A DNA stretch of 64,000 nt, taken from contig NZ_QXDF01000001.1 of NCBI RefSeq assembly GCF_003550175.1, positions 892,501 to 956,500 on the forward strand, given 5' to 3'. The DNA is from Dichotomicrobium thermohalophilum. GTDB lineage: Bacteria; Pseudomonadota; Alphaproteobacteria; Rhizobiales; Rhodomicrobiaceae. A model generated the notes under the pieces. It was not told the origin of the DNA. It was given only the letters and a program-made list of their open reading frames with translations, and ran no database searches. Shown piece after piece: positions 44,739-55,921 of the stretch (the stretch's first letter is position 1; each line of letters opens with the position of its first letter). The translations under genes and the position numbers were made by a program.

Positions 44739-45961
<1,223 letters not shown>

Positions 45962-45964
45962 GTC

Positions 45965-46621
45965 TCACCCCCGCCGGATCAGCATCAGCCCGCAGCCGAA
46001 GGCCTTTGCCCGTCCAAACCCCTGCGCGACGCGGGACAGGAAGGCTTCAGGGTCGGTAATCTTGATGGCGCCTTGTAGATCGATAATGCCAAACCGCGGA
46101 CCGTTGCGGCGAGGCTCTGCGACGCGGTAGCTGCTTACTGTCGCTGCATCTACCTCAAAACCGGCGCGCGCGCCCTGGCCAGCGAGCCATTGCCTTCCGG
46201 CATCCTGCGCGACCTCCATGCGGACCGCAGCGCGTTGCCCCTTCGGCACTGGGTGGAGCGCCTCCATCACGACGTCGCGATGCCGCTTCCGGCCATCGGC
46301 ATCGGTCACGGTCCGCGTGGCGTTTGCCCTAAGAAGAATCTGGAGGCGGTCACCATATCGCAGGTCAGGCTCGAACGGCTTGGTGTCGATTTCCTCGAAC
46401 AGCGCGCTTTCTCTCGGCTCGCGCGGCGAAAGCACCAGGAACTGACCCCTTCCCATATCCCGCCACAGGAAGTCACGCCGTGCGTCATGGTTGCCCGCGA
46501 ACGCCGACCAGATAAGGCGGTGGTGAGCGTCCATGCGTCGTCCATCGTGCTCAGGCTCAAGCAGTTGCCCGAGCGCCGCAATGTCAGGCTTGCGCGAGAG
46601 CGTGAGACGGGAGAGATACAT
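45965..46621 (-). CDS. cas6e: Cas6e (CasE) crRNA endonuclease
   Basis: 218 residues from ATG 46621: MYLSRLTLSRKPD, DAHHRLIWSAFAGNHDARRDFLWR with the His likely used in cleavage, and a C-terminal GFGRAKAFGCGLMLIRR, the Gly-rich loop of RAMP proteins. It cuts the precursor at the repeat hairpin and stays bound to the crRNA. The ATG shares one base with the TGA of the DUF262 gene (TGATG), so the two are translationally coupled. Confidence 0.96.
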   Translation of the reverse strand: MYLSRLTLSRKPDIAALGQLLEPEHDGRRMDAHHRLIWSAFAGNHDARRDFLWRDMGRGQFLVLSPREPRESALFEEIDTKPFEPDLRYGDRLQILLRANATRTVTDADGRKRHRDVVMEALHPVPKGQRAAVRMEVAQDAGRQWLAGQGARAGFEVDAATVSSYRVAEPRRNGPRFGIIDLQGAIKITDPEAFLSRVAQGFGRAKAFGCGLMLIRRG

Positions 46622-48494
46622 CACTCGTCGTCCTGTGAGCCATTCTCCAGATCCTCATCGATTTCCCCTTCCGGCTCTTCGGGCTCGTCGGGGTGGACCA
46701 GCGGAAGGCCCATAGCGTTTGCCGCGAGAGTCGCAAGCTTCTGCTTGCGGTCAGCGATAAAGCCGTCGAAGTCATCGTTGCGCAGGAATGAAGGCTCAAT
46801 GAGATGACTGCGGAGAATCTCGTCCATCTGCGCGACGCTCAGGTCATACCTGTCCTCTATCCGAGCGAGATATTCTGAGGGTGCGCGCCCGCCGATCTCC
46901 CGATTTGAGGCAGCGGTGAGCGGAGTCTTATTCAGTATGGAATCATATTGGTTGGCCGATATGTTTCGGTCTCTGCACCACGCGCGTGGGAAGATGTGAT
47001 GGACATCCATCGGGTCGTTCCCGAACGCGTAGAGATCCGCTGGTTGCCCAGTTATGAAATCTTGGCACCCTTCGCGCAGTAGTAGCGCGGCGAAGGCTCG
47101 ATAGGCTGCGGAATTGCGCGTTGTCAGCGTATCCAACCGTTCCGGGTTAAAAGTGAGAAGCCTGAGCCGTGAAGGCTCTTCACCGCCCGCGATCCAGCGG
47201 GTGACTTCCTCCGCGTCCTTGGCAAGTTTCGATTCTGGAGAGGTGCCATAATCTTCGGCAAGCGCCGTGCGCCAGAACCATAGCTTCAACTTGTTGGTGA
47301 CCGGGGGCGGATATGGGCCACAGTCAGCAACGGCGAAGATCGCTGCCAGCGCCACCATCTGCGCTGGATAAGGCAGGTCTTTCGCCCAGAGAATCTTCTG
47401 CTCGTTTAGGAACCGACCCGCCGCGCGAAATCCCTCCTCCACGCGGTCAGCATGGGCGCGATAATCGGCCAGATCCAACTTGAGAAGCGCCTCGCGCTTA
47501 CACGAGATCTGGGGCGGTTCAGAGCCTCTCACCTGTAAGGCTTCGCGGCGCGCAGCATGGGTGACGGACAACGAGACCGCCTGGAGAAAGTCGAACCCGC
47601 GCAGATTGTGGAAGACGGGGTTGAACATGCCGCGTCCATCTCGCCCAGTACGGATGGCTTGAAGCCGGGCCTTCCAGTCGTCTCGCAGGTTCAGGGGGTC
47701 AGGTTGGCCCGCAAAGATCGCAGTGACCAGTTCGAAGGCATCGAGCTTCTTTCCACCAACATTGACCTTTTCGAAGACGAGGCAAACGGCCTCTCTGCTG
47801 GTGTCGCGCGCTAGGCTAATGACAGGCATCTGGTACGAACGGACCGCATCAAGGATCTCTTGGCGAAATTTCCGTCCAAGCTGTGCCATGTTGGGATCGC
47901 GATCTCTCCAATAGTCGCGGAATTCGTCGATCCAATCGAAAGCGGAATCGGCAAATGCGATGTTGAGAGGGAAACACGCTTCCCGGAACTCGTCCTCCCG
48001 ACTCGATAGGTCGATACCCAGCACCTCGTCACGCCGGACGCGGCTCTCGGGCAGGCCGAGGATGGCGTCTTCGATATCCTCACCTGGTTCGAGCGCTTTC
48101 TGAATGTCCAAGTAGTAAAAACGCTTGAGCGTCTTGCGCTCGCTTTTTGGCTTGCGAACGGTCATCGGAAGTGGGCTCATGAACGCGCCGTATAGCGAGG
48201 TGATACGCTGCTGGCCGTCAAGCAGAAGTTCCTCAGCCGCCGCAGCGGGCGGCTCGCCATCAGCCTGTCGCGCTGCGGCTACCCCTTCCAGAAGCCGCGG
48301 CCGAAAATTCACCTCTCCACCGGTGGTAAGCGTTAGAAGCGCACCGACCGGAAAGCCCTTGAGAATGGAGGCGAGAAGCATCCGGACATCGTCATCGGCC
48401 CAGACATAGGAGCGCTGGAAATCAGGCAGCTGAAGCTCTCCAGCGTGTCCCTTGGTTAGAAGTTCTCGCAGAAAACGCGGATTGGTTTCGAAGG

Positions 48495-48498
<4 letters not shown>
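46621..48498 (-). CDS. GmrSD-type DUF262-HNH nuclease embedded in the Cascade operon
   Basis: 625 residues from ATG 48498 with GGAAGGA upstream. The N-terminal DUF262 domain has LPDFQRSYVW (residues about 24-33), ASILKGFPVGALLTL, the hallmark LLDGQQRITSLYGAF (92-106) and VFEKVNVGGKKLDAFELVTAIF. The C-terminus has a DUF1524/HNH-like nuclease: DPMDVHHIFPRAWC (His-His at about 500), ILNKTPLTAASNREI and APSEYL, then an acidic tail. This is the single-chain architecture of GmrSD, a type IV enzyme that cuts glucosylated hydroxymethylcytosine DNA. It starts in a 4-nt overlap with cas5e and ends in a 1-nt overlap with cas6e, so it is co-translated with Cascade. It is not a standard type I-E component; its role there is unknown. 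Confidence 0.9.
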
Positions 48499-50791
<2,293 letters not shown>

Positions 50792-52516: not shown

Positions 52517-55060
52517 TCATGCCTGATTGACAGAGGACGACAATATCAAACCCATCTCGGGATCGTAGCGCAAGCCAGGACAGATCTGGTGGTCAGGGGG
52601 TACTGTTACGAAGCACCGCGTTGCGGTCAGCCATCTCGGCAGATTGACAGGGGGCACCGCTTCGGGCAGCGCCAAACGATCCAGCCGTGCGGCGGATGCT
52701 GAGACCTCCGAAAGCTGCGCACTCTCGACGTTCCACCGGTCTCCAGACCAAGGCGCGTCTCCTCTCATCAAGACCATGGTCTTCTGCCTGGCACCCAGCC
52801 GTGTTGGATATTCCGCATCCTCGGCGCCACTGGCACCTGCACGATAACCGGCAAGCCAGTCAATCTGGTTTTGCCCGGCGTGCGTGGCCTGGGCCTTGTC
52901 CACGCCCTCGGCGCGGAACTCAGCGGATTGGAGCACCTCAGGAACGGTCAGCGATCGGCCATGCGCGGCTTCAACGAGATCGCGTAGCCCTTCTGGCACG
53001 CGTATTTCGCCCGCCTCAAACAGCACTTTCGCCGTGCGCCAGAGGAGGGGTAAGGCATAGACATAGGCTCCTTGGCCCAGAACGTGGCGGGCCCAGTTCT
53101 CGCCAGTCACCAGCCCTGGATCGGGCGACAGAACCTGCAGCGTTGGCCGGTCCACCGGGCGCAGCCCGGCCGGGCGCAGGTCCATGTGCCGCCAAAGCCG
53201 GCCAGCACGCTGAATGAGCGCTGCCATGGGCGCGAGATCAGACACCATCACATCGAAATCGAGGTCGAGCGAACTCTCAACGACCTGCGTCGCGATGAGC
53301 ACCTGCCCTGGGTGCGCCGAGCGATGCTTGCCGAAGGTTTCCAGTATCCTCGCCTCGTGTCGCTTCCGGTCGACGAGTGCAAAGCGCGCGTGCAAGAGTT
53401 CGGCGGGAACGCCCCTAGCGCGCAGGGTGTGAATCGCGGCGATGGCCTCGTCTACGGAGTTCCTGACCCAGACGCAGGCAGCTCCTTCCCCGGCAGTCTT
53501 GGTGAGCAGATCAAGCGCCTGATCGGCAGACTGGACACGTTCGACTGCGACCGGCCCGCGGTTCGTCTCCGAGCGGTTAGCTGAGACTGTAGGCGTGGAT
53601 ACACCGGGGACTGTGAGCGCTGGATAGGCTGAGTTCTCAATCGCGGGCGCTTCCCGCCCCGCGCCCGTCTCAAATGCCGCCACCAATCGAGAGCGGAGCT
53701 CCAGGGGGAGTGTCGCCGACATGAGAATCGCGGAGCCACCTTGTGCCGCGTGCAGATGCAAGAGCGCTGACAGCAGTTCGCCCATATAGGGGTCGCCCAT
53801 CTCATGCGCTTCATCGACCACCAAGATCTTCCGGGAAAGGCCGAACTGGCGTAGCGGCGCATACTTCGCCCGGACGACTGCGAGAAGCGCTTGATCGACG
53901 GTTCCCACCCCGACATCGGCGAGCAGCGCCTTGCGGCGACTATCGAGAAGCCACTCAGTTGGCCCTGGCTCGTCCGGGTTGCGGTCACGCGCCAGCGCAA
54001 GCTCTCGGAAGCCTTCATGAAGCCCCGACCGACCGTGCGCCAGCGATAGGCTGGGGGCCGTGTCGTAGAGACATTTCAGGACGTCGGCAACCCGGCCGAA
54101 CATGGCGTCAGCTGTCGCCATTGTCGGCAGCGCGAAGTAAAGGCCTTCCGCTTTTCCCTCAAGGAGCATGCGCTGCGCGAGGATGATGCCCGCTTCAGTT
54201 TTGCCGGATCCGGTCTCGTCCTCGATCAGTGCCAGCATCGGGCCTGAAGGCAATTCCACCTGCTCACAAGCGGTCTGCATTGAGCGCAAGGCAAAATTGA
54301 ATGGCCGCACGGATGCCGCAGGCGGCGCGACAATACCGGCCTTGCCGATCGCATCGGCGGCGCGCTCTCTGGTTTCGGCGAGATAGGCGGCAGGCAATGG
54401 GCCTGGTGCACTAGGAGGAAACCAAGCGGGGTTCGAGCCGATCCAGTCTGCTGTTGTAACGAGACCAGCAAGGCGCCAAGAAAGTCGACGCGCCTGTTCT
54501 GAGGTCATACTGCCAAGACATGCGTCCGGCCAAAGCTCAGTGAAAGCCCGGATGACCTCAGCCGCATCTGCAACAGCGGTCTCTCCCGCGGCATCGATCA
54601 TCGCCTTCCACTCGCCGCCGGGACCCGTATTCCGCCGGTTCAGGTGCAGATCTCGCGATGGCGGACGGCCGTGATGGCCAGCTGTGGCAGCATAGAGCTC
54701 GTAGCGGGCAAACTGGTCGCTGCCCAGCGTCGGTGCTAACAGATCGTCATGCAAGCGGAGGAAGGCTTCGGTGACTTCCCAGTGCCGTCCCGCAACTTGC
54801 GGCTGGGCGTGACGGAGCATGGCCCGAAAGGCAGCGCTGATTTTCCCCAGGTCATGAAGGGCAGCCAGCAAGATCAGTGCCTGCCGAACAGGTTCACGGA
54901 ATGACTCCGGAGCGATCAGGCGCTCGGCGACCGCCGCCACATCCAGCATATGGTACACAGCAGGCTGCGAAATGCCGCCATCTTCGTGAGCGCTTTTCCC
55001 CGGCCAGGCTTCGATTATTTGTGCTAAGCTCCCGCTCCTCATTTGCACGTCACAACGCAT
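52517..55060 (-). CDS. cas3: Cas3 helicase-nuclease (type I-E)
   Basis: 847 residues. The N-terminal HD nuclease has H37 (AVYHMLDV), LLAALHDLGK (HD at 69-70) and YAATAGHHGRPP. The SF2 helicase has DETGSGKTEAG (Walker A), VVDEAHEMGDPYMGEL, ILMSATLPLELR, IATQVVESSLDLDFD and LIQRAGRLWRH. All nuclease and ATPase residues seem present, so it should degrade target DNA. The first ATG (55060) is only 18 nt from the IS element; a second ATG at 55042 is possible. It is set apart from cas8e by 240 nt. Confidence 0.96.
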   Translation of the reverse strand: MRCDVQMRSGSLAQIIEAWPGKSAHEDGGISQPAVYHMLDVAAVAERLIAPESFREPVRQALILLAALHDLGKISAAFRAMLRHAQPQVAGRHWEVTEAFLRLHDDLLAPTLGSDQFARYELYAATAGHHGRPPSRDLHLNRRNTGPGGEWKAMIDAAGETAVADAAEVIRAFTELWPDACLGSMTSEQARRLSWRLAGLVTTADWIGSNPAWFPPSAPGPLPAAYLAETRERAADAIGKAGIVAPPAASVRPFNFALRSMQTACEQVELPSGPMLALIEDETGSGKTEAGIILAQRMLLEGKAEGLYFALPTMATADAMFGRVADVLKCLYDTAPSLSLAHGRSGLHEGFRELALARDRNPDEPGPTEWLLDSRRKALLADVGVGTVDQALLAVVRAKYAPLRQFGLSRKILVVDEAHEMGDPYMGELLSALLHLHAAQGGSAILMSATLPLELRSRLVAAFETGAGREAPAIENSAYPALTVPGVSTPTVSANRSETNRGPVAVERVQSADQALDLLTKTAGEGAACVWVRNSVDEAIAAIHTLRARGVPAELLHARFALVDRKRHEARILETFGKHRSAHPGQVLIATQVVESSLDLDFDVMVSDLAPMAALIQRAGRLWRHMDLRPAGLRPVDRPTLQVLSPDPGLVTGENWARHVLGQGAYVYALPLLWRTAKVLFEAGEIRVPEGLRDLVEAAHGRSLTVPEVLQSAEFRAEGVDKAQATHAGQNQIDWLAGYRAGASGAEDAEYPTRLGARQKTMVLMRGDAPWSGDRWNVESAQLSEVSASAARLDRLALPEAVPPVNLPRWLTATRCFVTVPPDHQICPGLRYDPEMGLILSSSVNQA

Positions 55061-55077: not shown

Positions 55078-55921
55078 GGGTCTGTTGAGAATCACCGGCT
55101 ATTGATGATCGCTGCGCAGGCGCTAATCATCGCGGCGAAGCTGGTGTCGGTCTTGTCGCTGCGCATGGCGATACGTTTGAACTCCCTGAGTTTGCAGAAA
55201 AAATTCTCAATCAGGTGACGCCACGTATACATGTCGCCGTCGATCTCCAGCGGGGTCTTGCGCTGGGGGCGCTGGGAGATGCAAATCCCCGCGCCCCGCT
55301 CATTCATCTCATCGATGATCCAACTGCTATCGAACGCCTTGTCAGCGAGCAAGGCGTCGAAGCGAAGCCCCCGGATCAGCGGCGCGACGCCAACCGTGTC
55401 ATAGCGGTGGCCGGGCAGGAGAATGAACCGCACAAGGTTGCCAAGCGCGTCGGTCAGCGCGAGGATTTTCGTCGTCCATCCGCCTTTCGATTTGCCTATC
55501 GCCTGAGCTTGAGTCCCCCTTTTGAGCCTTGTCCGTGGCGGTGAACCTTAACGATCGTGCCATCGATCATCGCCACTTCCATATCGGGCTCATCGCTTAA
55601 AGCATTGAATATCATGTCGAACGCGCCCGCACGCGACCAGTCCCGAAAACGCCGGTAGATCGTGTTCCACTTGCCGAATTTCGGCGGGAGATCGCGCCAC
55701 TGCGCGCCGGTTCGCGCAATCCAGAACACGGCTTCGAGAAACAGCCGCGGATCGCTCCCCGTGCGCCCGGGATCCTGCTTGCGCCCCCGGCAATGCGGCT
55801 CGATCTTCTCCCACTGTGCGTCCGTGATGATAAATCTGCTCTGGTCCATTCATGCCTCCCGCGTTTTGGAAGCACGAATCACTGTTCGCGCGATTTGTGA
55901 ATCCTAAATCTCAAAAGACCC
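55078..55921 (-). mobile_element. IS5-family insertion sequence (IS427-like), about 844 bp
   Basis: The two-frame transposase is bounded by imperfect inverted repeats: GGGTCTGTTGAGAATCACC at 55078 and, on the other strand from 55921, GGGTCTTTTGAGATTTAGG (14 of 19 identical). If the ends are taken one base in, the flanks are CTGG and CTAG, close to a 4-bp target duplication. An alternative left end at 55062 (TA/GGGTCTGAG) would give flanking TA dinucleotides. It lies between the glycerophosphodiesterase gene, whose TAG stop touches the IS end, and cas3. Confidence 0.85.
55092..55849 (-). CDS. IS5-family transposase in two frames (programmed frameshift)
   Basis: The first frame (55849 to 55496, 117 residues) carries the IS5 N-terminal domain: MDQSRFIITDAQWEKIEPH, FWIARTGAQWRDLPPKFGKWNTIYRRF and AMIDGTIVKVHRHG with the first catalytic Asp. 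The second frame picks up near 55510 (AIGKSKGGWTTKILALTDALG) and continues through LPGHRYDTVGV, LLADKAFDSSWI and YTWRHLIENFFCKLREFKRIAMR with the catalytic Glu, to a stop at 55092. Two overlapping frames joined by a frameshift are normal for this group. The element therefore looks potentially active. Confidence 0.88.

What the first reader, a model, noticed from the sequence alone, without database searches (positions are those of the whole stretch)
46621..48498. GmrSD-type DUF262-HNH nuclease is a cistron inside the type I-E Cascade operon
The gene sits between cas5e and cas6e, genes that normally adjoin. It shares a 4-nt overlap with cas5e and a 1-nt overlap with cas6e, and has its own good ribosome binding site. 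It carries the DUF262 DGQQR motif and a C-terminal HHIFP HNH-like motif, the architecture of type IV enzymes that cut glucosylated hydroxymethylcytosine DNA. Phages use such modification to escape CRISPR and restriction, so a built-in partner that attacks modified DNA would close that gap. Alternatively it could be a Cascade-linked effector or an abortive module triggered when Cascade is inhibited. I know of no described type I-E variant with this gene.
Basis: partly seen in the sequence, partly recalled or inferred. Interest (0 to 1): 0.92.

Follow-up and report, generated by a model that had tools for sequence, protein, structure and literature searches.

The report
BrxU-like nuclease nested in CRISPR operon
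In one bacterium, a gene for a DNA-cutting enzyme of a family known to attack chemically modified phage DNA has slipped neatly between two genes of a CRISPR operon; its relatives sit in many other defence operons in the same way, so this looks like a travelling defence gene in a new host operon rather than a new kind of CRISPR system.

Summary
Window 46621-48498 (-) encodes an intact 625-aa DUF262 (GmrSD_N) protein between cas5e (4-nt ATGA overlap) and cas6e (1-nt TGATG overlap), inside a complete type I-E operon (cas3-cas8e-cas11e-cas7e-cas5e-DUF262-cas6e-cas1e-cas2e) beside an array with 43 exact repeats. An AlphaFold model (pLDDT 89.5) significantly matches only one solved structure, the type IV restriction enzyme BrxU. 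The DGQQR and HNH residues are invariant among relatives.

About 1,650 genomes were searched, and all 45 other I-E loci I measured, three of them in the same family, have cas5e and cas6e adjacent. None of about 55 relatives whose flanks I inspected lies beside cas genes. Relatives are nested instead in other defence operons: between Res and Mod of type III restriction-modification in 11 loci (two with the same -4/-1 overlaps), behind hsdS, and in DISARM, Druantia and Zorya/type I loci. In the tree the window protein groups with two type-III-nested copies.

Best explanation: an autonomous BrxU/GmrSD-like, NTP-gated, modification-dependent nuclease that moved into the I-E operon and is co-expressed with Cascade as a second defence layer. 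Substrate and any Cascade coupling are untested.

The parts
46621..48498 (-). BrxU/GmrSD-like DUF262-HNH protein, 625 aa
   Evidence: PF03235 E=3e-27; fold match to BrxU 7p9k E=3e-14
48205..48219 (-). DGQQR motif (residues 94-98), putative NTP site
   Evidence: invariant in A1 (27 sequences) and A2 (29 sequences)
46987..47001 (-). HHIFP motif (residues 500-504), HNH-type nuclease site
   Evidence: H501 and P504 invariant in A1 and A2; H500 invariant except one gap in A1
46918..46932 (-). NKTPL (residues 523-527), second HNH element; N523 and N532 invariant
48505..48510 (-). Shine-Dalgarno-like GGAAGG in the 3' end of cas5e, upstream of the inserted gene's ATGA start
   Evidence: the same SD+ATGA layout precedes cas6e in many uninterrupted I-E loci
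48495..49199 (-). cas5e (casD), intact
   Evidence: TIGR01868 109 bits, cutoff 69
45965..46621 (-). cas6e (casE), intact
   Evidence: TIGR01907; HRLIW motif and glycine-rich loop present
49192..50280 (-). cas7e (casC)
   Evidence: TIGR01869
50277..50795 (-). cas11e (cse2/casB)
   Evidence: TIGR02548
50792..52276 (-). cas8e (cse1/casA)
   Evidence: TIGR02547
52517..55060 (-). cas3 with HD domain, GSGKT and DEAH intact
45038..45961 (-). cas1e
   Evidence: TIGR03638
44739..45041 (-). cas2e
   Evidence: TIGR01873
42089..44680 (.). CRISPR array, 43 exact repeats, 61-nt period

Best explanation
The gene encodes a self-sufficient BrxU/GmrSD-type restriction nuclease. An N-terminal DUF262 NTPase (DGQQR) gates a C-terminal HNH nuclease that most likely cuts phage DNA carrying base modifications. 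It belongs to a mobile family that repeatedly nests, as an overlapping cistron, inside operons of other multi-gene defence systems. Here one copy, whose closest relatives nest between Res and Mod of type III RM, entered exactly at the cas5e/cas6e start-stop overlap of a complete type I-E operon. There it is co-transcribed and translationally coupled with Cascade, as an independent second layer against DNA that Cascade cannot bind. Shown: gene, junctions, intact motifs, fold, nested relatives, absence from other sampled I-E loci. Inferred: co-transcription, modification-dependent cleavage, independence from Cascade.
For: BrxU (7p9k/7p9m) gives the only significant PDB fold matches (E=3e-14, prob 1.00), on a model of pLDDT 89.5. 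A profile search hits BrxU first (4e-15) and SspE further down. DGQQR and HH..P...N...N are invariant. PADLOC top hits are PDC-M55C and HEC-05; HECs are 'Hma-embedded candidates' and PDCs 'putative defence candidates' found by 'guilt-by-embedding' (PMC12988326). 11 relatives lie between type III Res and Mod; two of them (L052, L054) have the same -4/-1 overlaps. Others lie behind hsdS with a -4 overlap (L118), after drmC of DISARM (L016, L017), before a DruE homologue (L112), and between ZorD and hsdM (L116). In the tree, window + L110 + L119 (95/88) and + L052 (100/99) form clades; L110 and L052 are type-III-nested. All 45 measured other I-E loci lack the insert, including three of the same family. 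The host genome lacks that type III Res and Mod, so this copy works without its usual neighbouring methylase, as a modification-dependent enzyme would. Precedent: BrxU beside BREX acts independently and complements it.
Against: No substrate or activity is tested. TM-scores to BrxU are only about 0.4 at rmsd 16 A, so domain arrangement differs or is flexible. PF07510 does not match. SspE shows that this architecture can also be a nickase tied to a host modification. The window protein is the most diverged member at family-conserved positions (17 of 161; the next, L052, 15), so its specificity or partner may have changed.
Confidence: 0.7

Rival explanations
1. Guard or abortive module: the protein sits on or senses Cascade and is unleashed when a phage inhibitor disables it, as PrrC does for EcoprrI.
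For: Tight translational coupling inside the Cascade genes. PrrC is a nested-gene precedent (PMC12707154). The protein is the most diverged member at family-conserved positions.
Against: Close relatives sit in unrelated systems (type III RM, DISARM, Druantia, type I RM), so no shared partner exists to sense. There is one known I-E case only, and BrxU is reported to act independently of BREX.
Confidence: 0.1
2. Cascade-recruited effector: the HNH nuclease cuts at R-loops, like Cas5-HNH or Cas8-HNH in HNH-Cascade systems.
For: It lies directly after cas5e, and HNH domains have been added to Cascade on independent occasions (PMC10910872). Part of the C-terminal domain resembles Cas9 HNH (E=0.02; prob 0.96, E=0.4).
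Against: It is a separate protein, not fused. Cas3 is intact, whereas most HNH-Cascades lack cas3. The full GmrSD architecture is kept, and no recurrence was seen.
Confidence: 0.06
3. Neutral hitchhiker: the insertion has no current function and is on its way to decay.
For: Single occurrence, and the most diverged member at family-conserved positions.
Against: 625-aa open frame, every invariant catalytic residue kept, both junctions clean, SD retained, well-folded model.
Confidence: 0.1
4. Assembly chimera that joined unrelated DNA inside the operon.
For: The gene is slightly lower in GC (0.584 versus 0.61-0.65 for cas genes).
Against: Two exact start/stop overlaps with both flanking genes intact; 7-contig assembly with 99.8% completeness.
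Confidence: 0.01

Closest known systems
BrxU (E. fergusonii pEFER), GmrSD-family type IV restriction enzyme associated with a BREX operon (PMC8565348; PDB 7p9k, 7p9m)
   Same: DUF262 + HNH single chain, DGQQR motif, H-[I]-x-P HNH motif, whole-length fold match, gene within another defence system's locus
   Different: About 17% identity in the structural alignment; host operon is CRISPR-Cas I-E, not BREX; substrate not tested
PADLOC HEC-05 / PDC-M55C (defence candidates found by 'guilt-by-embedding'; Payne et al. 2024 preprint 10.1101/2024.01.29.577857, cited in PMC12255303)
   Same: Best PADLOC models for this protein (6e-29 and 1e-19) and for all 27 aligned relatives; the same habit of nesting in defence operons
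   Different: The preprint itself was not readable here, so whether it lists a CRISPR I-E host is unknown
DUF262 copies nested between Res and Mod of type III RM (L052, L110, L054, L113, L114, L115, L014, L165-L167, L171)
   Same: Closest relatives (40-50% identity); L052 and L054 have identical -4/-1 gene overlaps
   Different: Host system is type III RM with a methylase
SspE (DUF262-DUF1524 of the Ssp phosphorothioation system)
   Same: Same two-domain architecture, DGQQR motif, detectable profile similarity (4e-6)
   Different: SspE works with a host modification system; none of that kind adjoins this gene
Cas5-HNH type I-E variant (PMC10910872)
   Same: An HNH nuclease associated with cas5 of I-E
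   Different: There the HNH domain is fused to Cas5 and cas3 is mostly absent; here a separate GmrSD-family protein and an intact cas3

Membership tests
[quoted passage not shown]
   PF03235 E=3e-27; DGQQR 94-98 invariant in 27 relatives
[quoted passage not shown]
   HHIFP plus N523 and N532 conserved; BrxU fold match aligning 668 columns. PF07510 itself does not match
[quoted passage not shown]
   Needs biochemistry
Embedded defence gene (guilt-by-embedding, HEC/PDC type) | Gene lies between core genes of another defence operon, same strand, tight spacing | tested here: met
   -4 nt and -1 nt overlaps with cas5e and cas6e
Embedded defence gene (guilt-by-embedding, HEC/PDC type) | Family found nested in several unrelated defence systems | tested here: met
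   Type III RM, type I RM, DISARM, DruE homologue, Zorya/RM-I contexts
New type I-E CRISPR-Cas variant | Recurs at the cas5e-cas6e position in other I-E loci | tested here: not met
   0 of 45 measured I-E loci; none in 1,651 genomes or on plasmids
New type I-E CRISPR-Cas variant | Gene tree follows cas genes | tested here: not met
   Same-family genomes with I-E (L125-L127) lack it; nearest kin lie in type III RM
HNH-Cascade (Cas5-HNH) | HNH fused to a Cascade subunit, cas3 absent in most | tested here: not met
   Separate ORF; cas3 intact

The most novel reading that the evidence does not exclude
The inserted nuclease is functionally coupled to Cascade: activated when Cascade stalls on modified DNA or is blocked by an anti-CRISPR, making this operon an I-E system with a built-in fallback effector.
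Probability: 0.1. Interest if true: 0.85.

Novelty: new member of a known kind. Interest (0 to 1): 0.42.

Why it matters
It adds a CRISPR-Cas effector operon to the hosts in which a GmrSD-family gene can nest, which none of the papers I could read describes. It pairs adaptive immunity with a likely type IV enzyme that would catch phages whose DNA modification hides them from Cascade, the same logic shown for BREX and BrxU. It also suggests that start/stop overlaps inside defence operons are landing points where such genes can enter without breaking the host system. It is one case, not a new CRISPR type.

Tried and rejected
Recurrent I-E variant: rejected after searching 1,651 genomes with a cas7e-cas5e-DUF262-cas6e composite query and plasmids. 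Close relatives in 84,980 species genomes: only L003 found, and it is not beside cas genes; that scan needs an exact 8-residue match, so distant cases could be missed. Donor type III RM in the same genome: none found; the Res search had no positive control. Own promoter for the gene: no sigma-70-like site on either strand of the operon, which is uninformative for this organism. P0001-specific scan of viral contigs: none; the profile scan gave 80 loci. PF07510 as proof of the HNH domain: not met. Caveat: the BLAST query may have carried the 100-aa Cas2 sequence at its end through a file-reading slip (some alignments run past residue 625, e.g. q1-628); context calls are unaffected and the tree used the clean sequence. 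Literature: no paper held joins DUF262 with type I-E Cascade or with cas5e.

Full report
What is there. On the minus strand of the window lies a complete type I-E system: cas3 (52517-55060), cas8e, cas11e, cas7e, cas5e (48495-49199), the DUF262 gene (46621-48498), cas6e (45965-46621), cas1e and cas2e, followed by a CRISPR array with 43 exact repeats at 61-nt spacing. Every cas gene has a Pfam or NCBIfam match above its curated cut-off, and Cas3 keeps its HD, Walker A and DEAH motifs. The DUF262 gene overlaps cas5e by 4 nt (ATGA) and cas6e by 1 nt (TGATG).

What the protein is. P0001 (625 aa) matches Pfam GmrSD_N at 3e-27 and no C-terminal Pfam family. An alignment of 27 full-length relatives shows invariant D94-G-Q-Q-R98 and H501, P504, N523 and N532. 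AlphaFold2 on an alignment of 29 sequences gave pLDDT 89.5 and pTM 0.83. Foldseek against the PDB gave only BrxU chains as significant matches (E 3e-14 to 9e-12, prob 1.00, over the whole length), although with TM about 0.4, which suggests similar domains in a different relative placement. A profile search of PDB sequences gave BrxU at 4e-15, other DUF262 proteins, and SspE at 4e-6. In PADLOC the best models are PDC-M55C and HEC-05.

Is it a type I-E variant? I searched 1,651 genomes in all, nearly all with a composite of Cas7e, Cas5e, P0001 and Cas6e: an even sample of the class, the order, the phylum and another class of the phylum. Only the home genome has the insert. In the 45 I-E loci whose DNA I fetched with both cas5e and cas6e, the two genes adjoin (largest gap 184 nt, commonest value -4), including L125, L126 and L127 from the same family. 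The plasmid I-E loci listed likewise show short spans. The insertion therefore appears restricted to this lineage in everything searched. The genus has no other genome in the set, so its age is unknown.

Where do the relatives live? Full-length relatives at 37-51% identity were mapped. Eleven lie between a type III Res and Mod gene: L052, L110, L014, L054, L113, L114, L115 and the viral-classified contigs L165, L166, L167, L171. L052 and L054 have exactly the -4/-1 overlaps seen in the window. Others lie immediately after hsdS (L118, -4 overlap by the ORF call), after drmC in DISARM (L016, L017), before a DruE homologue (L112), or between ZorD and a type I methylase (L116). Several stand alone. 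None is next to cas genes. In the maximum-likelihood tree the window protein falls with L110 and L119 (95/88) and then L052 (100/99); L110 and L052 are type-III-nested. Nesting between Res and Mod is scattered over the tree (at least 5 forced changes), so the family hops between hosts.

The junction. In many uninterrupted I-E loci the 3' end of cas5e carries a Shine-Dalgarno-like GGAGG or GGAAGG followed by ATGA, where cas6e starts. In the window the same SD+ATGA layout now starts the DUF262 gene, and cas6e starts at the new stop codon with TGATG, a form also used by cas6e at uninterrupted junctions in L149 and L152. The insertion thus landed at the start/stop overlap and damaged neither gene.

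How it most likely works. By family, NTP binding at DGQQR gates an HNH nuclease on modified DNA; BrxU and Eco94GmrSD do this (PMC10952713, PMC8565348). The home genome lacks the type III methylase that accompanies the closest relatives, and the family occurs with and without a methylase, so self-protection cannot depend on one cognate methylase; a modification-dependent enzyme fits best. Glucosylated DNA impairs target binding by type I effectors (Vlot 2018, cited in PMC6538845), so co-expression with Cascade would give complementary cover, the 'belt and braces' shown for BREX and BrxU. These functional steps are inferences.

Verdict. The gene is a new instance of a known phenomenon, a nested BrxU-like defence gene, in a host operon (CRISPR I-E) not reported in the papers I could search. 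The stronger idea of a Cascade-coupled nuclease is not excluded but has no support beyond position.

Noticed in passing
G000:C1:2003863-2004537 (L001): The same genome carries a second, distinct PF03235 protein (568-aa frame, 112 bits).
   Followed up: no
window 55092-55849 (-): Two ORFs of about 115 aa just upstream of cas3 look like pieces of one IS5-type transposase.
   Followed up: no
L165, L166, L167, L171: Contigs classified as viral in IMG/VR carry Res-DUF262-Mod-UvrD-like type III RM operons, so these nested operons may travel on mobile elements.
   Followed up: partly
L052:12992-15537, also L054, L113, L114, L165-L167, L171: Type III RM operons with the nested gene also carry a downstream UvrD/GajB-like gene (PADLOC GajB model, 2e-18), suggesting a larger conserved defence operon.
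   Followed up: partly
L257 (G1257:C155): A relative split over two adjacent alignments with a stop between them, possibly a pseudogene.
   Followed up: no
L012 and L013: Sphingomonad plasmids pair a related DUF262 gene with a conserved 730-aa helix-turn-helix protein directly upstream, a possible two-gene system that PADLOC does not recognise.
   Followed up: no
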